Shown here in pieces: positions 3,001 through 62,923 of a stretch of DNA of 64,000 nt; the stretch's first letter is position 1; each line of letters starts with the position of its first letter. The DNA is from Lactobacillus isalae (GTDB lineage Bacteria > Bacillota > Bacilli > Lactobacillales > Lactobacillaceae): positions 1,798,001 to 1,862,000 of the forward strand of contig NZ_OX443569.1 in NCBI RefSeq assembly GCF_947539375.1, written 5' to 3'. A program made the translations under genes and the position numbers. The notes under the pieces were generated by a model, which saw nothing but the letters and a program-made list of their open reading frames with translations, had not been told where the DNA came from and did not search any database.

Positions 3001-6000
3001 CTGCTGATAAAATTAAGGAATTGATTAGCCAAGGTTATGTTCTTAAGAATGATGGCTTCCCAGCAGGTGCCGTATTTGATAATGACGATAGTAAGGATCA
3101 AGTATTCTATGTAGACTTCATCCATGGTCAAGCTCCAGTTAACCCAGATAATCCACATGAAGGCATTGATCCAAGTCAATACGAAAAGACTGTTAAGGAA
3201 AGAGTTCATTATGAAGGTGCAGGAGATAAGACTCCAGTTGATAATGTTCAAACTTCTAAGTGGACCAGAACTTTAACTATTGATACAGTAACTGGCAACG
3301 TTGTTGAAAATGGTCAATACACTACTGATTGGTCAATCGCTAAGGGTGAAAAGACTGTTTATGATCAAGTTAATACACCGGTAGTTGATGGTTACCATGC
3401 TGATAAGAGAGAAGTTCCTGCTACTGCAGTAACTCCAGAAGATATTGATGTAGTAGTAACTTACAAACCAAATGGCAAGATCATTCCAACAGACCCAAGT
3501 GGCAACCCAATTCCAAACGTGCCAACTCCAACTTACCCAACTGATCCAAAGGATCCAACTAAGGTAGTGCCAGATGAACCAGTTCCTGACATTCCAGGCA
3601 TGATTCCAAGTACACCAACAGTAACTCCAGAAGAACCAGGTAAGGATACACCGGTACCATATAACCCAGTAATTCCAGCTAAGGATCAAGCAGCTATTGT
3701 TAGCTATATTGATGCCGATAATGGCAACGCTGAAATTACTAACTCAGGTAATTTGACTGGTAAGGCAGGCGATAAGATTGATTACAGTACTAAGTCAACA
3801 ATCGCTGATCTTGAAAACAAGGGCTACGTACTTGTAAACGATGGTTTCCCAGTAGATGCATCATTTGATAATGATGACAACACAACTCAAAGATTTGTTG
3901 TTGTATTGAAGCACGGTACAGTACCAGTAACGCCAGATCAACCAGGTAAGCCAGGTGAACCAATCAACCCTAACGATCCAGATGGTCCTAAGTGGCCAGA
4001 AGGCACTGACGAGAATAGTGTAAAGAGAACAGGAACTCAAACTATTCACTACGAAGGTGCAGGGGACAAGACACCAAGTGACGATGTACAAACATTCGAC
4101 TTCACTAAGAAGATGTTGGTTGACAAGGTAACTGGTAAGATCATCGACTCAGGCGAATGGAATGTAACAAGTCACACATTTGGCTACAAGGATACACCGG
4201 TAATTGATGGTTATCATGCAGACAAGCGTAACGCTGGTGGAACAGTTGTTACTCCAGATGACTTGAATAAGATTGTAACTGTAAACTACAGCCAAAACGG
4301 TAAGATCATTCCAACCGATCCAAGTGGCAATCCAATTCCAGATGTACCAACCCCAACTTACCCAACTGATCCAAAGGATCCAACTAAGGTAGTGCCAGAT
4401 GAACCAGTTCCTGACATTCCAGGCATGATTCCAAGTACACCAACAGTAACTCCGGAAGATCCAGGTAAGGATACGCCAGTACCATATAACCCAGTAGTTC
4501 CAGCTAAGGATCAAGCAGCTATTGTTAGCTACGTTGATGCCGATAATGGCAACGCTGAAATTACTAACTCAGGTAATTTGACTGGTAAGGCAGGCGATAA
4601 GATTGATTACAGTACTAAGTCAACAATCGCTGATCTTGAAAACAAGGGCTACGTACTTGTAAACGATGGTTTCCCAGTAGATGCATCATTTGATAATGAT
4701 GACAACACAACTCAAAGATTTGTTGTTGTATTGAAGCACGGTACAGTACCAGTAACGCCAGATCAACCAGGTAAGCCAGGTGAACCAATCAACCCTAACG
4801 ATCCAGATGGTCCTAAGTGGCCAGAAGGCACTGATGAGAATAGTGTAAAGAGAACAGGAACTCAAACTATTCATTACGAAGGTGCAGGAGACAAGACACC
4901 AAGTGACGATGTACAAACATTCGATTTCACTAAGAAGATGGTAGTTGATAAGGTAACTGGAAAGATCATCGACTCAGGCGAATGGAATGTAACAAGTCAC
5001 ACATTTGGCTACAAGGATACACCGGTAATTGATGGTTACCATGCAGACAAGCGTAACGCTGGAGGATCAGTTGTAACACCAGATGACTTGAACAAGACTG
5101 TAACTGTAAACTACAGCCAAAATGGTAAGATCATCCCAACAGATCCAAGTGGCAACCCAATTCCAAACGTGCCAACACCAACTTACCCAACCGATCCGAA
5201 GGATCCAACTAAGGTAGTGCCAGATGAACCAGTACCAGAAATTCCAGGCATGATTCCAAGTACACCAACAGTAACTCCAGAAGAACCAGGTAAGGATACA
5301 CCGGTACCATATAACCCTGTTAAGGATCCTGATAAGGTAACAACAGTCGAAGGTAAACAAATTGTTCACTTTGTAGATGGCGATAATGGTAATAATCCAC
5401 TTAGAGATCCAAACACTCAGACTCATGAATTTAAGATCACTAATGGTGTGCCGGATGAATCAAGTCACACATTTACACTCGTTGATGTACCAGTAATCCC
5501 AGGATATATTGCAGAAGTTAAATCTGCTGGTGGTAAGACTGTAACTCCAGATACTCCTCTTGCAGAAGTAACTGTTGTCTACCACAAGATTGGTAAGATC
5601 GTTCCAGTTGATCCAAATGGCAACCCAATTCCAAATGCACCAACTCCAAGCTATACTAACGATCCAACAGATCCAACTAAGGTCGTTCCAAATGAACCAG
5701 TACCAGCTATTACTGGTAAGACTCCAGATAAGACTTCAGTAACTCCAACAGATCCAACCAAGGATACTCCAGTTGTTTACAAGGATAATGAAGTACCAGC
5801 TACTCCAACTCCACAAAAAGCTGTAGTTAACTTTGTTGATGTTAATACTGGAAAAATTATTAAGACCTCTGGAATCTTGAGTGGTCGTCCAGGTGAAGAT
5901 ATTAATAAGTTATACTCATCTTCTGAAATAATTAAACAATTAGAAGATGCAGGCTATGAGGTTGTTTACAATGCATTTGATGGCGATGGTGTAACTAAGT

Positions 6001-6344
6001 ACTTCGATGATGATGACAATACTACACAACAATTTACTGTTGCCTTGAAACTAAAAGAAAAAGCTAAGACGCCTGATCCAATTGTTCCTGATCCAGAAAC
6101 CCCTGCTAAAGATCCAGAGACTCCAGCAGAAAAGGTAACTAGACCTGAACAACCAGTTAAGCAAACTGTCAATGTCCCAACTCCACAAAAACCTGTAGAG
6201 AAGAAGACTGCTGATAAGAAAGAAGTTTTACCTCAAACTGGTGCTGATAATAATGAAGCAGCTACTATTTTAGGTGCTGCCGCAGCAGCAATCGGTATGA
6301 CTAGCTTAATTGGAGCAAAGAGACGCAAGAAAGATGATAAATAA
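1..6344 (+). CDS. Giant mucus-binding surface protein, 5'-truncated by the window edge
   Basis: The reading frame is open from base 3 with no start codon or signal peptide in view, so the N-terminus lies upstream; about 2,113 residues are visible. It ends with a sortase signal: LPQTG, a hydrophobic Ala-rich stretch and an RRKKDDK tail, so the protein is covalently linked to the cell wall. The body consists of MucBP/Mub-type repeats. Two copies of a first type (around bases 190 and 890, with VDKDGN- or VDNNGK-like turns) precede five ~0.8-kb repeats carrying HYEGAGDKTP and NGKIIPTDPSGNPIP signatures. A Pro-rich spacer precedes the anchor. The family binds mucin glycans and intestinal mucus. 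Codon use is strongly biased (aag, aac, cca), as in highly expressed genes. A TTG at 186 is only an internal codon. The family assignment is firm; the ligand is inferred. Confidence 0.93.
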   Translation, partial: ILVTDGFTGQAGDDFTADNNGQVYKVVFKHGTRPVTPDNPADPNKPVDPDHPNTPTPSNPNLSKTDLQKTITRTVEYKYADGTQAHEPVKQELTFTGEGTIDLVTGNLVTVDKDGNVTSQNGKITWNHDSQDFNAIPAIDHTGYYISGINQNNSTANVDGQTGAVGAETVTPNSQNGNIVITLTKNPDVPVAAQGSITYIDDTTGQTIESANFAGSVGQKINYTTADSIKNWEAKGYNLVSNNFKDGEEVFTDGKNAFEVHLVHATTPVTPENPGKPGEPVNPSDPDDPHTYPDNYVPEELTKTVTRDVTYVYADGSQAEAPVHQEVKFTGNGYLDLVTGEYVTVDNNGKITGKGQINWTPENANFDATKSIDTSKYQIIGIKENNTTANVDQTTGVVAGETVTQNSNNSSVVITLANKPAPAKDQRAKVQYIDLDDNNKVMSESGELTGKAGERISYSTADEIAKYLSQNYVLAEDGFSNNPIFDNDDDNEQVFKVTFHHKQVPVNPDTPDKHGVDPSEVEKSVKERVHYEGAGDKTPADNVQTSKWTRTVTVDAVTGKVIENGQYTTDWSIAKGEKTVYDQVNTPVVDGYHADKREVPATAVTQDDIDVVVTYKPNGKIIPTDPSGNPIPDVPTPTYPTDPKDPTKVVPDEPVPEIPGMIPSTPTVTPEEPGKDTPVPYNPVIPAKDQAAVVNYIDADDNNAIITSSGNLTGKAGDKIDYSTKSTITDLINKGYVLVNDGFPVDASFDNDDNTTQIFTVILKHGTVPVTPDQPGKPGEPINPNDPDGPKWPEGTDENSVKRTGTQTIHYEGAGDKTPSDDVQTFDFTKKMLVDKVTGKILDSGEWNVTSHTFGYKDTPVIDGYHADKRNAGGTVVTPDDLDKKVVVSYKPNGKIIPTDPSGNPIPDVPTPTYPTDPKDPTKVVPDEPVPDIPGMIPSTPTVTPEEPGKDTPVPYNPIIPAKDQIAQVIYRDVQNGANKQIATSGNLTGKNGSEINYSTADKIKELISQGYVLKNDGFPAGAVFDNDDSKDQVFYVDFIHGQAPVNPDNPHEGIDPSQYEKTVKERVHYEGAGDKTPVDNVQTSKWTRTLTIDTVTGNVVENGQYTTDWSIAKGEKTVYDQVNTPVVDGYHADKREVPATAVTPEDIDVVVTYKPNGKIIPTDPSGNPIPNVPTPTYPTDPKDPTKVVPDEPVPDIPGMIPSTPTVTPEEPGKDTPVPYNPVIPAKDQAAIVSYIDADNGNAEITNSGNLTGKAGDKIDYSTKSTIADLENKGYVLVNDGFPVDASFDNDDNTTQRFVVVLKHGTVPVTPDQPGKPGEPINPNDPDGPKWPEGTDENSVKRTGTQTIHYEGAGDKTPSDDVQTFDFTKKMLVDKVTGKIIDSGEWNVTSHTFGYKDTPVIDGYHADKRNAGGTVVTPDDLNKIVTVNYSQNGKIIPTDPSGNPIPDVPTPTYPTDPKDPTKVVPDEPVPDIPGMIPSTPTVTPEDPGKDTPVPYNPVVPAKDQAAIVSYVDADNGNAEITNSGNLTGKAGDKIDYSTKSTIADLENKGYVLVNDGFPVDASFDNDDNTTQRFVVVLKHGTVPVTPDQPGKPGEPINPNDPDGPKWPEGTDENSVKRTGTQTIHYEGAGDKTPSDDVQTFDFTKKMVVDKVTGKIIDSGEWNVTSHTFGYKDTPVIDGYHADKRNAGGSVVTPDDLNKTVTVNYSQNGKIIPTDPSGNPIPNVPTPTYPTDPKDPTKVVPDEPVPEIPGMIPSTPTVTPEEPGKDTPVPYNPVKDPDKVTTVEGKQIVHFVDGDNGNNPLRDPNTQTHEFKITNGVPDESSHTFTLVDVPVIPGYIAEVKSAGGKTVTPDTPLAEVTVVYHKIGKIVPVDPNGNPIPNAPTPSYTNDPTDPTKVVPNEPVPAITGKTPDKTSVTPTDPTKDTPVVYKDNEVPATPTPQKAVVNFVDVNTGKIIKTSGILSGRPGEDINKLYSSSEIIKQLEDAGYEVVYNAFDGDGVTKYFDDDDNTTQQFTVALKLKEKAKTPDPIVPDPETPAKDPETPAEKVTRPEQPVKQTVNVPTPQKPVEKKTADKKEVLPQTGADNNEAATILGAAAAAIGMTSLIGAKRRKKDDK
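1270..5330 (+). repeat. Five tandem ~0.8-kb Mub repeat units, pattern A-B-A-B-B
   Basis: Units start near 1270, 2059, 2884, 3675 and 4500, each opening with CCAGCTAARGATCA (PAKDQ). Spacings are 789, 825, 791 and 825 bp. Units 1 and 3 carry the KERVHYEGAGDKTP version (type A). Units 2, 4 and 5 carry a KRTGTQTIHYEGAGDKTP version with a PDQPGKPGEPINP linker (type B). Units 4 and 5 are almost identical at the DNA level, so they look like a recent duplication. Confidence 0.88.
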
Positions 6345-6384
6345 TTTTTAAAATTAAATATCTTTTTTCAAATTAGCTAATAAA

Positions 6385-6420
6385 AAGGGCGTTGAGACTT
6401 GATTCTCAGCGCTCTTTTTT
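6385..6420 (+). terminator. Intrinsic terminator of the mucus-binding protein gene
   Basis: A GC-rich inverted repeat (GGGCGTTGAGA / TCTCAGCGCTC, with G-U pairs) is followed directly by six T, 40 bp after the stop codon. Confidence 0.85.
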
Positions 6421-6508
6421 AATACATTATATTTGTAAATAAATCGTGTATAAGATAAGACATACAATTATAGAGAATAATTCACTTTAATAAAGGGTAG
6501 GTAACATT

Positions 6509-9478
6509 ATGGATAATCTAAGTGAAAAAGTCGCAACAGTGGTTGTGAAATATACAGATTTAGATAATAATCTGACCGAGCTTTCTACTTCTGGAAGTTT
6601 GACTGGAAATATTGGTGATCAAATTAATTACAGTACAGCAGATGAAATTAAAAACTTAACCAATCAAGGGTACGTACTTGTTAATAATACGTTTGATAGT
6701 GAAGGAAAGCCTCCAGTATTTAGCGGCGACCAAGATAGTTATATGGTTACATTTAAGCATGGAAGAGAAAAAGTAACTGTTGATAACTTGAAATATGGTT
6801 GCAAGTTAGAAGATCTTCAAGTAAAGGGTACTCAAACAATTCATTATGTGGGTGCTGGTAGTCGAACACCTAGAGATGAGGTATCAACGATTACCTTTAA
6901 TCGGATTTTAGTTTATGATCGTGTAACTGGTAAAAAAATTGGAAGTAAAGGATGGGAAAGAGTTGAACAATCATTCCCTGTGGTTGCTGCACCAAGTATT
7001 TTAGGCTATATTCCCGATAAAGTTTTAGTTGGTGGAAAATCAGTTACTGCTGATGAACCAAATCGTGAATATACTATTACCTATAGGGTTAACGAACATA
7101 TTTCCAATAAAGAACAAAAAGCAGAAGTTAAATATCTGGATATTGACAGTAATAATGAAGAAATTGTTGAATCAGAACTTTTAACCGGTAAGCCAAATAC
7201 TAAAATTGATTACAGCACAATTGATCAACTTAAAAAATTAAATGAAAAAGGCTACGAAGTTGTAAGTAATGGCTTTGATGCTAATGGCGATATTCAATTC
7301 TTTGATACTAGTGATGATTATGTTCAGACCTTTATTGTTACTTTGAAGCATAAGCAGGTATTAGTTAATAAGAAAAATTCTCTAGAAGGTATTGATGAGA
7401 GTGAATATCATAAGACTACCAAGCGAGTTATTTCTTATGCAGGCGCTGGAGATAAGACCCCAGCAGAAGTAGTGCAAGCAGTAAGCTGGGATAGAAATCT
7501 TACGGTTGATGCAGCTACAAAACGAATTATTTCTGATGGAAAATACACAACTGACTGGAAGCCAGAGCAAGAGACGTATCCAGCAATTTCAGTGCCAGCA
7601 GTTAGTGAGTATCATACCCGCATTAAAGAAGTTCCTGAAGAAAAAGCACGACTTGCTAACATCACTGAAAAGATTAGATATGTGAAGAATGGCTATGTTG
7701 TTCCTGTTAACGAAAAGGGAGAAAAAATTGATAGTTTACCTAAACTACGTTTTGTCTCAGATAAAAATGATCCAACCTTAGTAACTTTGCCAGAAAACAA
7801 CTTAGAAGACGAAAAGTATGAACCAGAAGACATTAATTTAACTGAAGTTGATCCAGCTAATAATCTTGAAGTTAAGTATATTTTGAAACATAAATTTATA
7901 ACTATTAATAAGGATAACTCTCATTTTGATGTTAACCCTGGTTCATACCGTCGCACTGCTACAGCTCTAGTTCGCTATGAAGGAGCTGGCGATAAGAATC
8001 CTAAAGATTCTATTCAAACGGTTCAATGGAATAGAAATATTACCTACGATGAGGTGACAAAGGAAATTCTTGAAGATGGTAAGTATACAACTGACTGGAA
8101 ACCAGATAAAGAATACTTTGAAGCTGTAGATACACCAGTTATTTCTGGATTTACCGCTGATATCGGTGTAGTTGCTAAGCATGATGTAACGCAAAGCGAC
8201 CTTTTTGCGACAGTTACTTATCAAAAGAATGGTGCAATTATTCCAGTTGATGAAGATGGAAAAGAAATTTCTAAGGCTAAGCCAGTTCCATTTCTTAATG
8301 ACTTAACTGATCCAACTAGAGTATTAGCAACAGAAGAGGTACCTGAAATAGAAGGATACCGCAGAACGCAAGAAGCTGTTTTGATTAAAAATCCAGTAAA
8401 AGACATTAAAGTTAAATACATTCTAAAACCGCGCTACGTTCAAGTCGATAGCGACCATCCATATCGAACGGTTAAACCACACAACTATAGTATTTCAGTT
8501 AAGGAGACTATTCATTATGTTGGAGCTGGAGATACTACTCCTGTTGATCGAGTTCAAGGTGCACGATGGAATAGATCTTTAACAGTAAATGATAATAATG
8601 GTAAGCTGATTGAAAATGGGAAATATACAACTGACTGGACTGTTGATAAAAAGCAATATAGCACAGTTGTAACGCCTGTTGTTGATGGCTATCATGCAGA
8701 TCAATATCAAGTTAAAGCATGCGATGTCAGCCAAGAAAATATTGATATAGAAATAAAATATCAAAGAAATGGGCAGATTGTACCGGTAAATACTAAGGGT
8801 GAAAAGATTGAGCATGCAGACCAGCCAATTTATATAACTGATCCAACTGATGCAACCAAAGTTTTGATGGAACAACCGGTACCACGATTATTGAATTATT
8901 TGGCTGAAGACTCATCAATTGTGGTTAAAGATCCAAGCCGTGATACGAAAGTTACGTACTATACTTTTGATGAAATAAAAGGATTAGTAGCGAATAAGAA
9001 TTTGAAGGCTAAGATTCAATCAGTGGATAGTAAAGATGACGTCTCTAATATTGTTTCTTTGCCAGTTAGTGGCAAGAGAAGAAAGGCAATTGTTACTTTT
9101 GTTGATCTAAGTAATAATGCAACTCAAATTGCATCTTCTAGTGTCTTAAGCGGCAATGTTGGCGATAAGATTACGGATTTATACAGCACTAGCAACCAGA
9201 TCAATAAGCTTAAAAAAGATGGCTATGAAGTGGTTTATAATGGTTTTGATCCAAAAGGTGCAACTAAGTACTTTGATGAAGATCAAAGAAGGATTGCTAC
9301 ATTTACAGTAGCGGTAGAAAAAGTAACAAGCCCAGAGCCTAAAGATAAGGTGGATTCTAAAGAAGAAACATCAGAGAAAACTTCTAAGATAGAAGGAAGT
9401 ACAGAAGATATTAATTTAGACCAAGAAAATGTACAAGATCATAAAGTATTGAAGCATATTTTCCCTTGGATGAAATAG
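6509..9478 (+). CDS. Mub-repeat protein lacking signal peptide and cell-wall anchor
   Basis: 989 residues. The ATG follows a weak ribosome binding site (aaagggtaggtaac). The protein opens directly with a MucBP-like unit (VATVVVKYTDLDNN) and has about five Mub-type repeats, recognisable by HYVGAG or YAGAGDKTP, KYTTDWK and a hydrophobic NG.IVPV turn. No hydrophobic leader is visible at the N-terminus. The C-terminus (HKVLKHIFPWMK) has no LPxTG motif, no membrane segment and no basic tail. It is a diverged paralogue of the upstream adhesin and uses less biased codons. It may be a decayed adhesin that lost both ends, a protein exported by a non-classical route, or a reservoir of repeats. Homology is clear; localisation and function are unknown. 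Confidence 0.82.
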   Translation: MDNLSEKVATVVVKYTDLDNNLTELSTSGSLTGNIGDQINYSTADEIKNLTNQGYVLVNNTFDSEGKPPVFSGDQDSYMVTFKHGREKVTVDNLKYGCKLEDLQVKGTQTIHYVGAGSRTPRDEVSTITFNRILVYDRVTGKKIGSKGWERVEQSFPVVAAPSILGYIPDKVLVGGKSVTADEPNREYTITYRVNEHISNKEQKAEVKYLDIDSNNEEIVESELLTGKPNTKIDYSTIDQLKKLNEKGYEVVSNGFDANGDIQFFDTSDDYVQTFIVTLKHKQVLVNKKNSLEGIDESEYHKTTKRVISYAGAGDKTPAEVVQAVSWDRNLTVDAATKRIISDGKYTTDWKPEQETYPAISVPAVSEYHTRIKEVPEEKARLANITEKIRYVKNGYVVPVNEKGEKIDSLPKLRFVSDKNDPTLVTLPENNLEDEKYEPEDINLTEVDPANNLEVKYILKHKFITINKDNSHFDVNPGSYRRTATALVRYEGAGDKNPKDSIQTVQWNRNITYDEVTKEILEDGKYTTDWKPDKEYFEAVDTPVISGFTADIGVVAKHDVTQSDLFATVTYQKNGAIIPVDEDGKEISKAKPVPFLNDLTDPTRVLATEEVPEIEGYRRTQEAVLIKNPVKDIKVKYILKPRYVQVDSDHPYRTVKPHNYSISVKETIHYVGAGDTTPVDRVQGARWNRSLTVNDNNGKLIENGKYTTDWTVDKKQYSTVVTPVVDGYHADQYQVKACDVSQENIDIEIKYQRNGQIVPVNTKGEKIEHADQPIYITDPTDATKVLMEQPVPRLLNYLAEDSSIVVKDPSRDTKVTYYTFDEIKGLVANKNLKAKIQSVDSKDDVSNIVSLPVSGKRRKAIVTFVDLSNNATQIASSSVLSGNVGDKITDLYSTSNQINKLKKDGYEVVYNGFDPKGATKYFDEDQRRIATFTVAVEKVTSPEPKDKVDSKEETSEKTSKIEGSTEDINLDQENVQDHKVLKHIFPWMK

Positions 9479-51981: not shown

Positions 51982-52740
51982 ATGAAATACTATGCAGTAA
52001 AAACTGGACGTACTCCAGGTGTTTACCGGACGTGGGAAGATGCGAAAAAACAAGTTGATGGCTTTTCAGGCGCAGAGTACAAGTCTTTTGAAAAAATCAC
52101 TGATGCAACTGAATATCTTAATTGGAACAAAGAAACGCAACCAGATATTGTTAAGGAAGATTCTTTAATAAATGCTATCCAAAAGATCAGGTCAACTAAT
52201 AATGCTGTCAAAGCTAAGAATAAAAAAGTAGAAAAAAAGGCTAGCTCGGACAATCCAGCTGACTACTTTGCTACCATTTATACAGATGGTGGGTCACGAA
52301 ATACTGGCGTTCATAAGGGTGGTCATGTTAATAAAACTGATAGAGCAGCTTGGGCCTATTTAATTGAATGGGAAGACGGCCGTACCTATGGATCTGGCGG
52401 AGAATTTGGCGCTACAAATAATAAAATGGAATTACTTGGCCTAATTAATGCTTTAGAAAAGTTAATTGAACTTAAATTTAATAGTAAACATCTTTTATTT
52501 GTATTAGATTCGCAATATGTTTTAAATGGTATTAATAAACATTGGATTGAAGGATGGAAAAAGCGTGGCTGGAAACGATCAAACGGTCCGTTAATAAATG
52601 CAGCTGAGTGGAAAAGGCTGGATAATTTATTAGTTCATTTCTCTGATAGTACGTTTAGTTGGACTAAGGGACATGCGGACAATGAAGGCAATATTTTTGT
52701 TGACCATGAGTTAAATCGCTACATGGATAAAATGAAGTAG
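51982..52740 (+). CDS. rnhA: Ribonuclease H with N-terminal RNA:DNA hybrid-binding domain
   Basis: 252 residues. Residues 1-46 are the viroplasmin-like hybrid-binding domain (KYYAVKTGRTPGVYRTWEDA). A Lys-rich linker leads to the type-1 RNase H domain (about 90-250), whose catalytic acids are in YTDGGSRNTG, NNKMELLGL, VLDSQYVLNG and GHADNEGN. It removes RNA primers and R-loops. GAAAGGAAC lies before the ATG. It is divergent from the DUF915 gene. Confidence 0.93.
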   Translation: MKYYAVKTGRTPGVYRTWEDAKKQVDGFSGAEYKSFEKITDATEYLNWNKETQPDIVKEDSLINAIQKIRSTNNAVKAKNKKVEKKASSDNPADYFATIYTDGGSRNTGVHKGGHVNKTDRAAWAYLIEWEDGRTYGSGGEFGATNNKMELLGLINALEKLIELKFNSKHLLFVLDSQYVLNGINKHWIEGWKKRGWKRSNGPLINAAEWKRLDNLLVHFSDSTFSWTKGHADNEGNIFVDHELNRYMDKMK

Positions 52741-56316: not shown

Positions 56317-57306
56317 ATGAATAAAGAAGAATTGCACGAAATGTTGCACCCAATGAAATTAATCGGTCTTGGTGGAAACCAAGCCTTAGCAGAAAGAATT
56401 GCGGCTGCTTTAGATAAGCCATTACTAGAGACTGCTGTTCAACACTTCAGTGATGGAGAAATTCAAGTTAACATTACAGAAAGTGTTAGAGGTTGCGATG
56501 TCTACGTAATTCAATCCATTCAAGATCCAGTAAATGAAAACTTCATGGAACTGATGATTGTGTTAGATGCTTTACACCGTGCGTCTGCTCACTCTGTCAA
56601 CGTAGTAATTCCTTACATGGCATATTCTCGTCAAGACACTAAGAATCGTTCACGTGAACCAATCACTGCTAAATTATTAGCTAACTTGCTTCAATTGACT
56701 GATATTGACGACTTGATTGCTGTTGATCTACACGCATCACAAATTCAAGGTTTCTACAATATTCCAGTTGATCACTTGCACGCTATGCCAATCTTAGCTC
56801 AATACTTCTTAGATAACGGTATTGCAAGCAAGGATAATGATGATGTAGTAGTTGTTTCTCCAGACCATTCTGGTGCAAAACTTGCACGTACTTTTGGTTC
56901 ATACTTTGATGCACCAATCGCAATTGTTGATCAACGCGGTGCACGTTATGATGCAGAAGCTCATGATATGATTGGGGACGTTAAAGACAAAACAGTCATT
57001 ATCGTTGATGACTTGATTGATACTGGTTCTAGAATTGCCTCTTCAACTAGATCAGTTTTAGCTGCTGGTGCTAAGAAAGTTTATGTTGCTGCAACTCACG
57101 CACTACTTTCTCAAAATGCAATCGATGTATTGAACGAATTGCCAGTAGAACAAATCGTAGTAACTGATACTATTAAGCATAAGAAGTACCCAGATAGAAT
57201 GGTTCGTTTATCTGTTGCACGTTTACTTGCTAAGGGTATTGATTACATTTACAACGATAAATCAATCCACCAAATCTTTGATGAGCAAAACAGAATTCAA
57301 GGATAA
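56317..57306 (+). CDS. prs: Ribose-phosphate pyrophosphokinase
   Basis: 329 residues. The signatures GNQALAERIAAAL, FSDGEIQVNI, YMAYSRQDTKNRSREPITAK, DLHASQIQGFY, and the PRPP-binding loop VIIVDDLIDTGSRIAS are all present. It makes PRPP from ribose-5-phosphate and ATP for nucleotide, His and Trp synthesis. AAGGAAGGGC lies before the ATG. A second, damaged copy of its last ~165 bp lies at 59077-59245. Confidence 0.96.
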   Translation: MNKEELHEMLHPMKLIGLGGNQALAERIAAALDKPLLETAVQHFSDGEIQVNITESVRGCDVYVIQSIQDPVNENFMELMIVLDALHRASAHSVNVVIPYMAYSRQDTKNRSREPITAKLLANLLQLTDIDDLIAVDLHASQIQGFYNIPVDHLHAMPILAQYFLDNGIASKDNDDVVVVSPDHSGAKLARTFGSYFDAPIAIVDQRGARYDAEAHDMIGDVKDKTVIIVDDLIDTGSRIASSTRSVLAAGAKKVYVAATHALLSQNAIDVLNELPVEQIVVTDTIKHKKYPDRMVRLSVARLLAKGIDYIYNDKSIHQIFDEQNRIQG

Positions 57307-57397: not shown

Positions 57398-57426
57398 TTG
57401 AAATGATATTAATATTACAATATAAT
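57398..57426 (+). promoter_or_regulatory. Promoter of secreted peptide 1
   Basis: TTGAAA at 57398-57403 and TATAAT at 57421-57426 with an ideal 17-bp spacer. The copy before peptide 2 (59336-59364) has the same spacing, so the promoter was part of the duplication. Confidence 0.75.
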
Positions 57427-57473
57427 TTATTAAAAATTAAATATTTTAAATAAATTAAAGGAGGAAAGTAAAA

Positions 57474-57758
57474 ATGAAATTAAAGAAAGTTGTAACAGCT
57501 GTTGGAGTAGTGGCCTTAGGATTAGGTGCATTAAGTTTAACCTCACATAGGGCATCTGCAGCAGAAGTCGGTACTGATAGTGTAACTCTCAGTGTAACAA
57601 AGTCTGCATCAGCAAAGTGGAATAGTGTTTTAGAAGCAAAATTTGTACCTAATAATCATCGCCAAAATACAATTTTAGGTCCAGAATATGGAGGTGGAGG
57701 AGGCTATAGCAACTTAGGTAAAGGGTGGACTACTTCACCATATCCATATCCTCATTAA
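57474..57758 (+). CDS. Small secreted peptide 1, bacteriocin- or pheromone-like
   Basis: 94 residues. The signal peptide VVTAVGVVALGLGALSLTSH, with basic MKLKK before it, should be cut after the ASA of HRASAAEV (about residue 30), leaving about 64 residues. The mature part has ILGPEYGGGGGYSNLGKGW and a C-terminal SPYPYPH. No Cys. It shares its leader and the NSVLEAKF / NSVLESKF block with the third peptide, and GPEYGGG with the second. The GG and W/Y-rich tail recalls lactococcin-972-like bacteriocins, but the match is weak. AAAGGAGGAAAG lies before the ATG. It is followed by a CPBP-type membrane protease gene. Confidence 0.82.
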   Translation: MKLKKVVTAVGVVALGLGALSLTSHRASAAEVGTDSVTLSVTKSASAKWNSVLEAKFVPNNHRQNTILGPEYGGGGGYSNLGKGWTTSPYPYPH

Positions 57759-57798
57759 AAATATTGAAAATTCTAAAAATTTATTTTTATATCAAGTA

Positions 57799-57850
57799 AA
57801 TGCCGTTAAATTAGAAGAGAAAATCTAGATCTAGTTTAGCGGTATTTTTA
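57799..57850 (+). terminator. Hairpin between peptide 1 and its CPBP gene
   Basis: AATGCCGTTAAA / TTTAGCGGTATT (with G-U pairs) encloses an AGATCTAGAT-rich centre and is followed by T5. A trace of the same right arm (TTTAGCGGTATT) follows peptide 2 at about 59715. It could attenuate expression of the protease. Confidence 0.55.
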
Positions 57851-57854
57851 ACAT

Positions 57855-59057
57855 GTGAACATTATGAAAAATAAAATTTTATTAATACTAATTTATATAA
57901 ATATATTTTTTACTTTAATTATTTTGTCTAAAGATTTAAATTTTTTATGGGGTATACATTTAGGTATCTTATTTTTGATTGTCGTAATAAGAAAACAAAG
58001 CTTAACTTATAAAGTATTAGGTATTGTTTTTCTTCCATTTATTTTCTTTAGTCAATTTACTTTTTTTATAAATCTAATGATTAAAAAGTTTTCCAATTTA
58101 ATTATAATTTTTTATATTATATACATTATTGGAATGATCGGATTAATAATTCCACTTGTACAAAACTTATATGGGTCAATACGGCGCCCAATTTATCGAT
58201 TAATTTGTACCTTTTGGTTAAGTATTAGTATTTTTGGAGCAGGTCAGCCAGAGTTAGATCATTTGAGTTATGAAAGAGTAATAGTTGGATTAAATAGGTC
58301 GGATTTGGTTAAAGGAATAGTTATACTAATATACATGTATTTAGTAATTAAAAGATGGGGATATGAGGTTCGCTTTAATTTACCGATAGATTTTTCAAAA
58401 TATAGAAATATTATTATTTTAGTTGTAACTATGATTACAGGCATTTGGTTTTGTCTTTTTGTTGTATTTAGCAGTATAGCAATTAACTATAAAGCGATTT
58501 TTGAAAATTGGGATTTTTCTTTAATTAATCCAACATTGTCAGAAAGATTTAAGAATAGTTGGGAGATATATTTTTCAGCTATTGAGGCAAGTCTAGTAGA
58601 AGAAAGCGAAAGATATATCAATTTAATACTTATTTTTGCTATTTTAAAAAAGCAAAAATTTAGGCTTGAATTATCAATTTTGTGCAGTAGCTTACTTTTT
58701 GCTCTTCCGCATATTTTTAATGTTTTTTCTATACCTCCATATCAACTGTCATTCGAAGAGGCAATATATCAAGTATTTTTTGCCTTTGGTTTTGGTTGTT
58801 ATTTAGCTGTTGTATTTTTATATACTGGAAAATTATGGGTAGTCATATTATTTCATATCTTTTATGATAGTTTGGTATCTTCTATCACACCATTAGGGAT
58901 AAGTGGTAGTCTAATTTTGAGTCGTATTTCGTACACCATGGTGGTTACAATTGGTTGGCTACTTTTAGCAGCTATAATTTTTATACTTAACAAAAAAATA
59001 ATTAAAGAAAATATTATTCTTCTTACCGAGAGAAGGAATGAAAAAATACTTAGTTAG
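57855..59057 (+). CDS. CPBP-family intramembrane protease 1 in the peptide locus
   Basis: 400 residues from GTG (or 397 from the ATG at 57864); neither has a clear ribosome binding site. About ten hydrophobic segments. The C-terminal third holds the three CPBP/Abi motifs: VEESERY (EExxR), FALPHIF and HIFYD, followed by SSITPLG. This family includes CAAX-prenyl-type proteases, PncO/SkkI-type bacteriocin immunity proteins and maturation proteases. It pairs with peptide 1, as the paralogue does with peptide 3. AT content is higher than in the neighbours. It may process the peptide, give immunity or act on a signal. Confidence 0.82.
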   Translation: MNIMKNKILLILIYINIFFTLIILSKDLNFLWGIHLGILFLIVVIRKQSLTYKVLGIVFLPFIFFSQFTFFINLMIKKFSNLIIIFYIIYIIGMIGLIIPLVQNLYGSIRRPIYRLICTFWLSISIFGAGQPELDHLSYERVIVGLNRSDLVKGIVILIYMYLVIKRWGYEVRFNLPIDFSKYRNIIILVVTMITGIWFCLFVVFSSIAINYKAIFENWDFSLINPTLSERFKNSWEIYFSAIEASLVEESERYINLILIFAILKKQKFRLELSILCSSLLFALPHIFNVFSIPPYQLSFEEAIYQVFFAFGFGCYLAVVFLYTGKLWVVILFHIFYDSLVSSITPLGISGSLILSRISYTMVVTIGWLLLAAIIFILNKKIIKENIILLTERRNEKILS

Positions 59058-59076
59058 ATATAAAATTTACTTTGGT

Positions 59077-59245
59077 TTGATCAATTACTAGTAGAACAAA
59101 TTTTTGTAACTGATACTATTAAGTATAAGAAGTATCTAGATAGAATGGTGCGGTTATCTGTTGCATGTTTAAAGGTATTGAGTATATTTACAATGATAAG
59201 TCAATCTACTAAATCTTTGATGAACAAAACAAAATTTAAGGATAG
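59077..59245 (+). pseudogene. Duplicated, decayed 3' end of prs
   Basis: The sequence aligns with the last ~170 bp of prs and its downstream flank: GTAGAACAAAT, GTAACTGATACTATTAAG, ATAAGAAGTA, AGATAGAATGGT, TTATCTGTTGCA, then ATTGAGTATATTTACAATGA and ATCTTTGATGA. It has many substitutions and a 7-bp loss (ACTTGCT) that breaks the frame. The GGATAGTTCCCATT... flank continues the match into the terminator. It marks the 5' edge of the duplicated segment. Confidence 0.9.
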
Positions 59246-59269
59246 TTCCCATTAAATTTTAATATTTAT

Positions 59270-59315
59270 TAAAAAGCTAGAAGTTAGTTTGATAAGCTAT
59301 TTCTAGTTTTTTTTA
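59270..59315 (+). terminator. Duplicated copy of the prs terminator
   Basis: Stem AAAAAGCTAGAA / TTCTAGTTTTTT, diverged from the prs terminator but at the same relative place. Confidence 0.72.
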
Positions 59316-59335
59316 TTTAAAAAATAAAAAAATGC

Positions 59336-59364
59336 TTGAACTTGTATTAACTTTATAATATTAT
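59336..59364 (+). promoter_or_regulatory. Promoter of secreted peptide 2
   Basis: TTGAAC at 59336-59341 and TATTAT at 59359-59364, 17-bp spacer, aligned with the peptide 1 promoter. Confidence 0.65.
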
Positions 59365-59411
59365 TTATTTAAAATTTAAAAAAACTTTAATTCAGTAAAG
59401 GAGGAAGAAAA

Positions 59412-59624
59412 ATGAAAAAAGTTATAACAACTATTGGAGTAGTGGCAATGGGATTAAGTACTTTAAGTTTTACGGCACATAGCGTGTCAGCAGTAAAAGT
59501 AAGTACCAATAGAGTATTAGAATCAAAATCAGTATCAGGAAGTTGGCAAAATAGAATTGCAGGACCTGAATATGGAGGCGGTGAATATACCATTTGGTCA
59601 ACCCCACCATGGTCATCTCATTGA
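59412..59624 (+). CDS. Small secreted peptide 2
   Basis: 70 residues. The leader VITTIGVVAMGLSTLSFTAH ends at SVSA, giving a predicted mature form of about 43 residues. The mature part contains RVLESKSVSGSW, RIAGPEYGGGEY and ends TPPWSSH. Compared with peptides 1 and 3 it lacks about 20 residues after the cleavage site. AAAGGAGGAAG lies before the ATG. No CPBP gene follows directly; the next gene is peptide 3. Confidence 0.78.
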   Translation: MKKVITTIGVVAMGLSTLSFTAHSVSAVKVSTNRVLESKSVSGSWQNRIAGPEYGGGEYTIWSTPPWSSH

Positions 59625-59774
59625 ATGTCATAAACTACTATAATTTAGCCTAGTTTAATTAAATTTTTTACTAAGGTTGATATAGTTAAGACTTATGTGC
59701 TAAATTTAGCGGTATTTAAAAAAGTTCTATATAGAAGAATGTGAATTTATAGAATAAAAAAGGAGAAAGTAAAA

Positions 59775-60068
59775 ATGAAATTAAAGAAAGTTATAACAAC
59801 TATTGGAGTAGTGGCTTTAGGATTAAGTGCATTAAGTTTGACCTCACATACGGCATCTGCAGCAGAAGTGGATACTGATACTGTAACTTTCAACGTAAAA
59901 AATAATGCATCAGTAAAATTAAATAGCGTTTTGGAGTCAAAATTTTTCTATAATGGACGCAGAAATTACTTCTTAAATCCTGATAAAGGTGGAACTACTT
60001 ATCTGTGGGACACTCCAGGAGGGACATATCGTGATCCACGTCAACTTTATAGTAAAGGTGTACATTAA
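59775..60068 (+). CDS. Small secreted peptide 3
   Basis: 97 residues. The leader VITTIGVVALGLSALSLTSH is nearly identical to that of peptide 1, with predicted cleavage after TASA (about residue 30). The mature part has VKLNSVLESKFFYNGRRN, NPDKGGTTYLWDTPGGTY and ends QLYSKGVH. AAAAAGGAGAAAG precedes the ATG. It has no obvious promoter of its own and may be read from the peptide 2 promoter. The CPBP paralogue follows after a strong terminator. Confidence 0.8.
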   Translation: MKLKKVITTIGVVALGLSALSLTSHTASAAEVDTDTVTFNVKNNASVKLNSVLESKFFYNGRRNYFLNPDKGGTTYLWDTPGGTYRDPRQLYSKGVH

Positions 60069-60111
60069 AATATTTAAATTGTTTGAGAAAAACATATTTA
60101 TTAATAAAAAC

Positions 60112-60160
60112 AAAAATCCTATTAAATCATAGTTAATACCAAGATTTAGTAGGATTTTTA
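60112..60160 (+). terminator. Strong terminator between peptide 3 and CPBP 2
   Basis: A 17-bp stem AAAAATCCTATTAAATC / GATTTAGTAGGATTTTT (one G-U) with a 14-nt loop. It separates the peptide transcript from the protease gene, which then depends on readthrough or a promoter inside 60160-60210. Confidence 0.87.
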
Positions 60161-60223
60161 ACTTCTAAGCTTTTATTGTAGATATATTTTTCAGACATTA
60201 AATTTTTAATATGGTGGAATCAT

Positions 60224-61438
60224 ATGAAGCATAGTAGAGTATTACAAATCCAAATTTATTTAAATATTGCGATTACGATAGTTATGTTAATAAATTATCA
60301 TACAATCAAAGATTGGATTTATATAGGTATATTGGTCATATCTATTTTAATAAATAAATTTATAAAAATATCCCAAGTAGTAAATATTGTATTTTTGCCT
60401 ATGATTTTTGTAGATCAATTTGGTTGTTTCATAGATTTACTTATAAAGGATTTACCTAAGTTAACAGTAATCCTATTCTGGATATATTTTGTTGGAACAA
60501 TGTTTGTATTAATTCCAGTCGTTTCGGTTGAATATGGAAAGATAGAAAAACCTATTTTTCGTTTGATAGCATCAGTATGGGTAACATACATGCTTTCAGC
60601 CATTGGGAGTCCCCTTTATTTACGAACCTTGTCTCAAGCACACGTATTAATAGGTTTAAATAGATCAGGGATTGTATATGGATTAACGACTTTAGTATAT
60701 GGATACATTCTTCTTAAAAAGTGGGGTTATAAGTTTAGGCTGAATTTGAACACTGAATTTTTTAGTAAAAGAAAAAATGTGATAGTATTTCTGCTAGTAA
60801 TGGGATGTACTATTTATATAGTTCTGTGCGAAGTATTTAGTAACATGGCGTTAAATTTGCAAGAATTGTTGTGGAAATGGGATTTTTCTTTAATTAATCC
60901 ATTTGATTCAATTTATTTTAGAGAATCATGGAGAATATTTTTTGATGCAACTGATGCTGGTATTGGCGAGGAAACAGTTCGATATATAAATATTTTGATC
61001 TTATTGATGATTTTTAAAAATAAAAACAATCAAATTGCGTATGCTATTGTAGTTAGTTCAATTTTATTTGCCTTACCACACATTGGTAGTGCGTTTGCTA
61101 GAGAGCATCGATTCTCTCTCTTAGGAACAACATTACAAGTAATTAACTCATTTGGCTTCGGATGTTTTATGGCTACACTTTTTCTTTATAGTGGAAAAAT
61201 ATGGATACCAATGATTATACATGCTTTGAATGATTTCTTAATTTTCTCAATTACGCCTCTTGGCACTAACAACGCAGGAATTTTTTATAGTGAAATAGGG
61301 CAAGTTTTAAAGGTATTAATATTTGTGTTCATTTGGATAATATTTGCAATAATTACCTTTACTAAGAATAAAGACATCATTCACAATAATGTCCAAATCT
61401 TGACTCGAGTTCAAAAAACAGATTTGACAATTTCGTGA
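60224..61438 (+). CDS. CPBP-family intramembrane protease 2 in the peptide locus
   Basis: 404 residues, about ten membrane segments. It is a paralogue of the first copy: the block KWDFSLINPFDSIYFRESW and motifs GEETVRY, FALPHIGSAF and HALND, then SITPLG, match it. The ATG has GGTGGAAT upstream. The 3' end contains a perfect -35 box for the next gene. Likely roles are the same as for the first copy: peptide processing, immunity or signal proteolysis. Confidence 0.83.
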   Translation: MKHSRVLQIQIYLNIAITIVMLINYHTIKDWIYIGILVISILINKFIKISQVVNIVFLPMIFVDQFGCFIDLLIKDLPKLTVILFWIYFVGTMFVLIPVVSVEYGKIEKPIFRLIASVWVTYMLSAIGSPLYLRTLSQAHVLIGLNRSGIVYGLTTLVYGYILLKKWGYKFRLNLNTEFFSKRKNVIVFLLVMGCTIYIVLCEVFSNMALNLQELLWKWDFSLINPFDSIYFRESWRIFFDATDAGIGEETVRYINILILLMIFKNKNNQIAYAIVVSSILFALPHIGSAFAREHRFSLLGTTLQVINSFGFGCFMATLFLYSGKIWIPMIIHALNDFLIFSITPLGTNNAGIFYSEIGQVLKVLIFVFIWIIFAIITFTKNKDIIHNNVQILTRVQKTDLTIS

Positions 61439-61570: not shown

Positions 61571-62923
61571 ATGGATGAAAAGGAGAAGCTAAAACTAAAA
61601 AGGTCGCTTAAGAGCCGTCATGTAACGATGATTGCAATTGGTGGAGCTATTGGTACTGGATTGTTTTTAGGATCTGGTACAGCTATTCAAAGTGCTGGTC
61701 CATCAATTATCTTGTCTTATTTGATCGTTGGTATTATTAGCTTTTTCATGATGAGAGCGCTCGGAGAGTTAATCTTAGCTGATCCTGAGCAACATTCATT
61801 TATCGAATCAGTAAAAAAGTACCTGGGAAATAGAATGGAATTTGTTGCGGGATGGACGTATTGGCTATGCTGGCTTAGTTTAGCGATGGCTGATTTAACT
61901 GCAACTGGAATTTATTTAAAATATTGGTTTAAAGATTTACCTCAATGGGTTGGTCCTCTAGTAATTGTCATCTTATTAATGCTTGTTAACATGGTTAACG
62001 TTGGATTATTTGGCGAGCTTGAAAGCTGGTTTTCAATGATTAAGGTATTGGCTATCCTAGCTTTGATTATTACTGGGGCAATTCTTTTAGTTATGCATAC
62101 CAAAATTGACTCTAGAACAGTTTCTCTTACTAATCTGGTGAATTATGGAGGATTTTTCCCAACAGGCTCGTGGGGCTTTTTAAAGTCATTTCAGATGGTA
62201 GTCTTTGCCTTTGTTGGAATTGAAATTGTTGGTTTAACAGCAGGTGAAACAGCCAATCCAGACAAGGACATTCCCAAGGCAATTAATACTTTGCCGGTAA
62301 GAATTGGATTATTCTACGTAGGGTCGATGATTGCTATTATGGCAGTCTATCCTTGGAACAAGATTGTTACTACAACTAGTCCATTTGTGCAGGTCTTTGG
62401 AGCAATTGGGATTCCTGCAGCAGCTGGAATTTTAAACTTTGTGGTTTTAACAGCTGCTATGTCTGCTACCAATAGTGCTATTTTTTCAACGAGTAGGTCA
62501 TTATACGCACTCTCACGTGGAAATAATGCACCTAAGAGATTTGGTAAGTTAAGTAAGAAAGCAGTTCCTAATAATGCCTTGACTTTCTCGTCGTTAATTT
62601 TATTTATTGTAGTAATTCTTAACTATATCATGCCAGCTCGAGTATTTGATATTATTTCTAGTGTTTCAACGATCAACTTCATTATGGTATGGATCATCAT
62701 TATGTGGACTCACTTAAAATACCGTGCTGAAAATAAAAATAATCTTGGTAGTTTTAGAATGCCAGGATTTCCTTTAACGAGCTGGATCACAATTATTTTT
62801 TACGTAGTAATTTTAGTGATTTTGGCGCTAATTCCAGCTACGAGATTGCCATTAATTATTTCAATCATTTTTATTCTAGTTTTAGCATTTAGCTATACTT
62901 TATTAGAGAAAAGAAAAAATTAA
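61571..62923 (+). CDS. APC-family amino acid permease (AAT type)
   Basis: 450 residues, 12 segments. The opening RSLKSRHVTMIAIGGAIGTG and GLFLGSGTAIQSAGPSIILS identify the amino acid transporter (AAT) branch of the APC superfamily (relatives import D-Ser/Ala/Gly, aromatic or basic residues with protons). The Glu of GELIL and the AGETANPDKDIPKAI loop are conserved. AAGGGGGATTAC lies before the ATG. The specificity cannot be read. It is driven by the consensus promoter and a terminator-containing leader. Confidence 0.9.
   Translation: MDEKEKLKLKRSLKSRHVTMIAIGGAIGTGLFLGSGTAIQSAGPSIILSYLIVGIISFFMMRALGELILADPEQHSFIESVKKYLGNRMEFVAGWTYWLCWLSLAMADLTATGIYLKYWFKDLPQWVGPLVIVILLMLVNMVNVGLFGELESWFSMIKVLAILALIITGAILLVMHTKIDSRTVSLTNLVNYGGFFPTGSWGFLKSFQMVVFAFVGIEIVGLTAGETANPDKDIPKAINTLPVRIGLFYVGSMIAIMAVYPWNKIVTTTSPFVQVFGAIGIPAAAGILNFVVLTAAMSATNSAIFSTSRSLYALSRGNNAPKRFGKLSKKAVPNNALTFSSLILFIVVILNYIMPARVFDIISSVSTINFIMVWIIIMWTHLKYRAENKNNLGSFRMPGFPLTSWITIIFYVVILVILALIPATRLPLIISIIFILVLAFSYTLLEKRKN

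What the first reader, a model, noticed from the sequence alone, without database searches (positions are those of the whole stretch)
57398..61438. Locus of three related secreted peptides and two paralogous CPBP membrane proteases
Three small genes have almost the same leader (GVVALGLxALSLTSH-like, Ala-x-Ala cleavage) but different glycine-, Trp- and Pro-rich mature parts sharing GPEYGGG or NPDKGG. They alternate with two ~400-residue CPBP-family proteins that keep all three catalytic motifs. Order: peptide 1, CPBP 1, peptide 2, peptide 3, CPBP 2. CPBP proteins act as immunity proteins or maturation proteases in some bacteriocin systems, and as signal proteases elsewhere. Constant leader, variable tail and repeated duplication are typical of toxins or pheromones under diversifying selection. 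The peptides lack Cys and double-glycine leaders, and no ABC exporter or histidine kinase is nearby, so this is not a classic class II bacteriocin cluster. A weak likeness to lactococcin 972 tails is the only family hint.
Basis: partly seen in the sequence, partly recalled or inferred. Interest (0 to 1): 0.85.

Follow-up and report, generated by a model that had tools for sequence, protein, structure and literature searches.

The report
Secreted peptides paired with CPBP proteins
A Lactobacillus locus encodes three small peptides that look exported and two membrane proteins of the CPBP family; the same kind of pair recurs in other Lactobacillus species and is most likely a little-known type of bacteriocin with its self-protection protein, which has not been tested in the laboratory here.

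Summary
Three short genes with Sec-type leaders alternate with two CPBP (PF02517) genes between prs and an amino-acid permease. Such peptides, 13 in 10 of 75 Lactobacillus genomes, lie beside CPBP homologues; this count is partly circular, as they were found by adjacency. A search with peptide 1 alone gives 4 small-ORF hits elsewhere: 3 beside a CPBP, the fourth judged chance. Control: 11 of 79 CPBPs against 4 of 243 other genes.

Motif 1 is EExxR, not EExxxR. The same CPBP clade lies inside double-glycine bacteriocin loci with a histidine kinase and LytTR regulator. A hairpin often ends close to the CPBP start, suggesting read-through. The locus is a recombination mosaic: leader DNA of peptides 1 and 3 is nearly identical (dS 0.09), the CPBPs saturated (dS 2.2). 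dN above dS was not seen.

Best reading: Sec-exported bacteriocin-like peptides with cognate CPBP immunity (0.6). Main rival: CPBP processes a signal peptide. Against: one intact peptide beside a broken CPBP, and 19 of 32 CPBPs of the clade with no peptide found. No experiment supports function.

The parts
57398..57426 (+). candidate promoter of peptide 1 (TTGAAA, 17 nt, TATAAT)
   Evidence: 11 of 12 consensus matches; promoter-like matches in this AT-rich region are no more common than in shuffles (22 against a mean of 29.5), so position is the main support
57474..57758 (+). peptide 1, 94 aa, Sec-type leader (Ala-x-Ala site by eye), tail with LGPEYGGG
   Evidence: ORF and Shine-Dalgarno-like site; no family match; relatives beside CPBPs
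57796..57849 (+). terminator-like hairpin; its T-run ends 14 nt before the CPBP 1 start codon
   Evidence: folding; the consensus scan, limited to loops of 3-8, lists no terminator in the region; no experimental test
57864..59057 (+). CPBP 1, 397 aa, PF02517, motif 1 EESER
59083..59260 (+). broken copy of the 3' end of prs, a scar of module duplication or insertion
   Evidence: 77-79% identical to the intact prs end and what follows it; 81-84% to the prs loci of this genome, G014, G071, G033 and G022
59336..59364 (+). weak candidate promoter of peptide 2 (TTGAAC, 17 nt, TATTAT)
   Evidence: 9 of 12 matches
59412..59624 (+). peptide 2, 70 aa, Sec-type leader, tail with AGPEYGGG; lacks most of the stretch between leader and tail
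59775..60068 (+). peptide 3, 97 aa, Sec-type leader, tail with LNPDKGG
60112..60159 (+). terminator-like hairpin between peptide 3 and CPBP 2 (T-run ends 64 nt before the start codon)
   Evidence: not listed by the scan
60224..61438 (+). CPBP 2, 404 aa, PF02517, motif 1 EETVR; AlphaFold model mean pLDDT 89.4
   Evidence: sharp identity step against G014 and G071 near 61400

Best explanation
The locus encodes two tandem units of a bacteriocin-like system. Each peptide is exported by the Sec route (leader removed by ordinary signal peptidase) and acts outside the cell on close relatives that lack the matching protein. Each CPBP protein is a polytopic membrane protein, probably made in smaller amount by read-through of a hairpin, that protects the producer against the peptide of its own unit. 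Because motif 1 is altered in the whole clade, protection may work by binding the peptide or its target rather than by cutting it. New specificities arise by recombination: shared prs and leader DNA lets tail-plus-CPBP cassettes be exchanged. Shown here: genes, pairing, co-inheritance, motif change, predicted hairpins, recombination scars. Inferred: export, killing, protection, read-through and lack of proteolysis.
For: Recurrent pairing: 13 peptides in 10 of 75 genus genomes beside CPBP homologues (ascertained by adjacency). Not ascertained that way: peptide 1 alone hits 4 small ORFs outside its genome at E up to 0.1; 3 (E 3e-5, 5e-5, 0.012) lie beside a CPBP, the fourth (G074, E 0.098) has no ATG and lies antisense to a 153-aa ORF. 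Control: the Sec rule fired at 14 of 79 CPBPs, 11 of them genuine Sec peptides, and at 8 of 243 other genes, 4 of these being the same CPBP-linked peptides; 11 of 79 against 4 of 243 gives p 6e-5. Peptide and CPBP similarities correlate over 12 pairs (Pearson 0.88 whole peptide, 0.79 post-leader, p 0.0005; Spearman 0.67 and 0.34, p 0.0005 and 0.0085). The same clade flanks double-glycine peptides in G003 and G010 loci with a GHKL histidine kinase and LytTR regulator; one G003 peptide matches class IIc bacteriocins at 64.1 bits, cut-off 27.1. Both leader types have their own peptidases (recalled), so what the two settings share is more likely protection. In G046 the paired CPBP has EQTEQ at motif 1. 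CPBPs stand without peptide at the prs site of G014 and G071, like orphan immunity genes. SkkI, PlnI and PlnL, of the same Abi/CPBP family, are immunity proteins (passage in PMC8538875).
Against: G023 has an intact peptide beside a CPBP split in two frames, awkward for a toxin with essential immunity unless it is silent or the break is a sequencing error. 19 of 32 distinct CPBPs of the clade have no peptide found. With one of each close pair dropped, the post-leader correlation weakens (Spearman p 0.06, Pearson p 0.0035) and that of the last 35 residues is lost (p 0.13 and 0.20), so matching of tail and CPBP is not shown. Eight weaker profile hits in frames under 120 aa (E 0.0018-0.007) have no CPBP near; I judge them unrelated leaders, but at least one (L204, G004) could be an unpaired small exported peptide. 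No exporter or regulator stands in the window locus. No activity data.
Confidence: 0.6

Rival explanations
1. The peptides are signalling peptides and each CPBP is the membrane protease that trims or releases its own peptide after Sec export, as proposed for SilX with SilCR.
For: CPBP proteins have such proposed roles: deletion of silX in S. anginosus removes bacteriocin activity, rescued by synthetic SilCR, without loss of immunity (abstract and sections 14 and 17 of PMC9298176). Several of the peptides keep a stretch between leader and tail (T-x-T-F-x-V-K ... L-E-S-K, by eye on the alignment) that could be removed in a second cut. It would also fit an intact peptide beside a broken CPBP in G023.
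Against: No receptor or regulator gene lies in the window locus (by eye). Motif 1 is shortened in the clade and degenerate in G046; SilX itself departs from the motif (EExxxQ), so this is not decisive. The same clade accompanies double-glycine peptides. CPBPs persist without a peptide at the prs site.
Confidence: 0.2
2. The CPBP acts on a cell-envelope or host-related function, and the peptide modulates it or is a surface peptide without antagonistic role.
For: A neighbouring clade of 9 CPBP rows, one of them in this genome (L057), has EExxR too and no peptide, so part of the wider family has another job.
Against: Recurrent adjacency and co-inheritance in the peptide-linked clade.
Confidence: 0.12
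3. The peptides are decaying copies of an ordinary exported protein and the arrangement is a chance product of tandem duplication.
For: A prs fragment and duplicated leaders show duplication in the window.
Against: Thirteen open peptide genes with ribosome-binding sites in ten genomes of different species, beside CPBP genes, with dN below dS where compared.
Confidence: 0.05

Closest known systems
CPBP/Abi bacteriocin immunity proteins (SkkI, PlnI, PlnL)
   Same: Membrane CPBP-domain protein next to a small peptide gene; keeps FxxxH and HxxxD.
   Different: One-residue shorter motif 1 (EExxR); the partner peptide carries a Sec-type leader, not a double-glycine leader. Immunity of the known ones is taken from passages of PMC8538875; the primary paper (Kjos 2010) is not held.
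Sec-dependent bacteriocins (enterocin Gr17, PMC6700250, seen only in a search listing)
   Same: Small peptide with Sec-type leader and no dedicated exporter.
   Different: Partner is a CPBP; no activity shown; no family match.
Lactococcin 972 family
   Same: Sec-type leader, no cysteine, Gly and Trp rich tail (family features recalled).
   Different: No lactococcin 972 model among the hits of any of the three peptides.
SilX of the S. anginosus sil/angicin locus
   Same: CPBP protein in a bacteriocin locus with a departure in motif 1 (EExxxQ).
   Different: SilX is proposed to process a signal and was found not to give immunity (PMC9298176).
blp bacteriocin loci of S. pneumoniae
   Same: Variable small peptides with shared leaders; CAAX-protease genes counted as immunity genes; diversity ascribed to recombination (passages of PMC4860687).
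   Different: Double-glycine leaders, ABC exporter and quorum sensing.

Membership tests
CPBP (PF02517) family | domain match above the curated cut-off | tested here: met
   41.5 and 47.3 bits against 22.4
CPBP (PF02517) family | motif 1 EExxxR | tested here: not met
   EESER and EETVR in the window; 48 of 75 homologous rows EExxR, 25 EExxxR, 2 neither (the rows include 3 repeats of window proteins and leave out homologues under 280 aa)
CPBP (PF02517) family | motif 2 FxxxH and motif 3 HxxxN/D | tested here: met
   F282, H286, H333, D337 invariant in 21 aligned rows
CPBP bacteriocin immunity protein | protects against the neighbouring peptide | not testable with these tools
   needs a sensitivity assay
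Lactococcin 972 family | profile match | tested here: not met
   no lactococcin 972 model among hits of any of the 3 peptides
Class II bacteriocin with double-glycine leader | double-glycine leader | tested here: not met
   leaders are Sec-like with Ala-x-Ala type ends (by eye); no Pfam PF10439 hit for the window peptides
Class II bacteriocin with double-glycine leader | dedicated ABC exporter with peptidase domain nearby | tested here: not met
   none seen by eye among ORFs of 120 aa or more in the window; the ABC-type genes at 33-34 kb and 42-45 kb look like ECF and amino-acid transporters; no family search was run on them
Sec-dependent bacteriocin | N-terminal signal peptide | tested here: inconclusive
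   basic start, hydrophobic core and A-x-A by a script rule and by eye; no trained predictor was available
Sec-dependent bacteriocin | antibacterial activity | not testable with these tools
   needs a killing assay

The most novel reading that the evidence does not exclude
A so far undescribed Lactobacillus family of Sec-exported antagonistic peptides whose cognate immunity is a CPBP-fold protein that has lost the protease geometry (EExxR clade) and protects without proteolysis; the same immunity clade serves both Sec-exported and ABC-exported peptides, so peptide tails and export leaders are exchanged as modules.
Probability: 0.3. Interest if true: 0.75.

Novelty: new variant of a known kind. 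Interest (0 to 1): 0.6.

Why it matters
If right, it adds a compact type of bacteriocin, needing two genes and no dedicated exporter, to lactobacilli; Pfam and NCBIfam do not recognise its peptides. It also makes an open question testable: whether CPBP immunity proteins must be proteases, since this clade has a contracted motif 1 and one member (G046) has Gln in place of the second Glu and of the Arg.

Tried and rejected
Lactococcin 972 kinship: no profile match. Diversifying selection: dN below dS in leader, tail and CPBP wherever compared. Constant leader and variable tail across species: not so; mean identity over 36 pairs is 0.31 leader, 0.23 middle, 0.27 tail (9 of 13 rows used, the others dropped as close or short), so the constant leader is a feature of the window paralogues. 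Terminator enrichment between peptide and CPBP: with a strict rule 5 of 10 pairs against 34 of 66 control gaps, no difference; only the distance to the next start codon differs. The tool's own scan lists no terminator in the region. The G074 hit to a peptide tail (E 0.098) has no ATG in its frame and lies antisense to a 153-aa ORF: chance. Weak small-frame profile hits (8, E 0.0018-0.007): none beside a CPBP, tails unlike. A peptide search in 397 genomes of the family (drawn evenly, at most 13 candidates scored per genome) found nothing convincing outside the genus; its two new hits lie in frames of 719 and 535 aa. PDB by sequence: one unrelated hit at E 1.7. Double-glycine tails against Sec tails: a profile of 4 double-glycine tails has three Sec peptides as best non-training hits among 383 small ORFs, but at E 0.08, 0.37 and 2.2, with window peptide 1 at E 19: suggestive only. 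A GP(D/E)...GG motif was chosen after the fact: with 1-4 letters before GG it is in the three window peptides and, by my reading, one of five double-glycine peptides, against none in 144,201 background residues; a second double-glycine peptide fits only with 5 letters, a spacing for which the background was not counted.

Not obtained: structure comparison with PDB and a fold of the peptide, so whether EExxR still builds a protease site is open.
Full report
What is there. On the + strand between prs (56317-57306) and an amino-acid permease (61571-62923) lie peptide 1, CPBP 1, peptide 2, peptide 3 and CPBP 2 (gene names of the flanks by eye). All three peptides have a basic start, a hydrophobic core and an Ala-x-Ala type end, and follow ribosome-binding sites. 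The CPBPs match PF02517 at 41.5 and 47.3 bits; the peptides match no family credibly. The genome, 2.12 Mb in one contig, has no further credible copy of the peptide and six PF02517 genes in all. Over 191 bases at the prs end it is nearest to G071 (97.9%), then G022 (93.2%), G014 (92.7%) and G033 (91.2%), among the loci compared. No call named the window's own species.

The pair recurs. CPBP 2 has relatives at E up to 1e-5 in 44 of 75 genus genomes, its own included. With the window this is 13 peptides in 10 genomes. A profile of these 13 rows finds exactly these 13 at E 2e-6 or better in 75 genomes. Many weaker hits follow; 8 of them (E 0.0018-0.007) lie in frames under 120 aa, and none of these 8 has a CPBP near. 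They look like leaders of other proteins or fragments, but one (L204, in G004) may be an unpaired small exported peptide. Since the rows were found by adjacency the count is partly circular. A search with peptide 1 alone hit 4 small ORFs outside its genome at E up to 0.1: G004, G033 and G023 (E 3e-5, 5e-5, 0.012) lie beside a CPBP; G074 (E 0.098) has no ATG and is judged chance. A script rule for Sec-type small genes within 200 bases fired at 14 of 79 CPBPs (11 genuine, 2 double-glycine, 1 false) and at 8 of 243 other genes, 4 of which were the same CPBP-linked peptides; 11 of 79 against 4 of 243 gives p 6e-5. In 397 genomes drawn from the family convincing members appear only in this genus (at most 13 candidates scored per genome).

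They are inherited together. Over 12 pairs CPBP similarity correlates with peptide similarity (Pearson 0.88 whole, 0.79 post-leader, both p 0.0005; Spearman 0.67 and 0.34, p 0.0005 and 0.0085). Dropping one of each close pair leaves Pearson 0.77 (p 0.0005) and 0.46 (p 0.0035), Spearman 0.65 (p 0.01) and 0.33 (p 0.06); for the last 35 residues significance is lost (p 0.13 and 0.20). Shared ancestry of the locus explains this as well as matching specificity does.

The CPBP clade is unusual. Motif 1 is EExxR in 48 of 75 homologous rows, EExxxR in 25, neither in 2 (rows of 280 aa or more, 3 of them repeats of window proteins). On a maximum-likelihood tree, rooted at the midpoint, the 25 EExxxR rows form one group (100/99) without a Sec peptide; all Sec-linked CPBPs in the tree (13 rows, 10 distinct) fall in a clade of 35 rows, 32 distinct (96/99). 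The paired CPBPs of G034 and G023 were too short as read to enter it. Sec peptides occur at 10 of 47 distinct non-EExxxR and 0 of 25 EExxxR CPBPs, p 0.012. In G046 the motif reads EQTEQ. One EExxxR CPBP (L082) does stand near double-glycine peptides, so the link of motif and peptides concerns the Sec type. Of the other four PF02517 genes of the window genome two have EExxxR (L193, L194) and one EExxR (L196); L198 was not resolved. The AlphaFold model of CPBP 2 is good (pLDDT 89.4) but no coordinates or structure search could be had, so the effect of the shorter motif is unknown.

The same clade lies in ordinary bacteriocin loci. In G003 (L190) two CPBPs stand next to a series of double-glycine peptides, a GHKL histidine kinase (PF14501, 46.5 bits), a LytTR response regulator (54.9 bits) and a class IIc bacteriocin (PF10439, 64.1 bits, cut-off 27.1); G010 (L191) has a kinase, a regulator, double-glycine peptides and CPBPs in the same way. 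Two of the three GPDG-type double-glycine peptides scanned had no Pfam hit and one a sub-cut-off hit to PF10439. In G058, G059 and L. pasteurii a CPBP stands near a double-glycine peptide and a small gene; those of G058 (L015) and L. pasteurii (L091) match the enterocin A immunity family (29.4 and 25.3 bits, cut-off 22.1). Since double-glycine leaders are removed by the exporter and Sec leaders by signal peptidase (recalled), the function common to both settings is more likely protection than leader removal (inference).

Expression. By a relaxed rule a hairpin with a T-run lies between peptide and CPBP in 7 of 10 pairs with the peptide upstream; G018a shows another by folding. The scan lists none in the window, its loop limit being shorter. 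Such hairpins are as common between other neighbouring genes (39 of 66), but here the T-run ends 12-64 nt before the CPBP start, against 13-111 nt in controls (p 0.0007; 6 of 7 within 50 nt against 8 of 39). That leaves little room for a promoter, so CPBP is probably made by read-through and in smaller amount (inference). In L. agrestimuris and L. pasteurii the order is reversed, CPBP first.

History. A broken copy of the end of prs stands before peptide 2, as expected if a unit carrying its own prs end was inserted next to a resident one. The prs site is empty in G022 (L. johnsonii, 296 bp to the permease), holds a lone CPBP in G014 and G071 and a broken one in G033. CPBP 2 is 49-76% identical to the lone CPBPs per 75-base block until about 61400, then 95-100%: a sharp breakpoint. 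Leader DNA of peptides 1 and 3 has dS 0.09 (about 2 of 23 synonymous sites), post-leader about 0.9, CPBPs 2.16, so leader and CPBP are unlikely to share one history without recombination or gene conversion. The L. hominis tandem does not repeat this: its leader is not homogenised (dS 0.44 against 0.34 in CPBP), though its tail changes fastest (dN 0.26 against 0.06 leader and 0.14 CPBP). In G033/G023 leader and tail are equally conserved (dN 0.13 and 0.12).

Judgement. Immunity plus exported peptide is the most likely reading (0.6), processing of a signal the main rival (0.2). The weakest points are the intact peptide beside a broken CPBP in G023, the many CPBPs without peptides, and the absence of activity data. 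Eight paper searches showed, by title and start of abstract, no paper on a Sec-peptide and CPBP pair in Lactobacillus; three returned nothing, two were shown in part (15 of 34, 12 of 140), and the library lacks most subscription papers.

Noticed in passing
window 59083-59260: Degenerate copy of the 3' end of prs inside the array, 77-84% identical to intact prs ends.
   Followed up: yes
L190 7681-16077 (G003) and L191 1865-8827 (G010): Regulated double-glycine peptide loci with two CPBPs each and peptides with a GPDG core, mostly without Pfam match.
   Followed up: partly
L019 1026-2208 (G023): CPBP split into two frames beside an intact Sec-type peptide.
   Followed up: partly
L014 43-1283 (L. 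colini; same locus as L094): Three near-identical tandem 68-aa hydrophobic ORFs next to a CPBP of the clade, on the opposite strand.
   Followed up: no
L072 upstream of 1749 (G068): A Sec-leader ORF with a partly hydrophobic tail upstream of a CPBP, perhaps a further or decayed peptide; not in the counts.
   Followed up: no
L204 near 218-349 (G004, first 2.4 kb of a contig): A frame of about 80 aa with a Sec-like leader and no CPBP in the 2.4 kb looked at; a possible unpaired exported peptide.
   Followed up: partly
window 186-9478: Two neighbouring large repeat proteins that look by eye like mucus-binding adhesins; only the first ends in an LPxTG-like anchor.
   Followed up: no
window, 83 bases after the gene at 51982-52740: A 62-aa acidic small ORF with a hydrophobic N-terminus, found as a control hit.
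   Followed up: no
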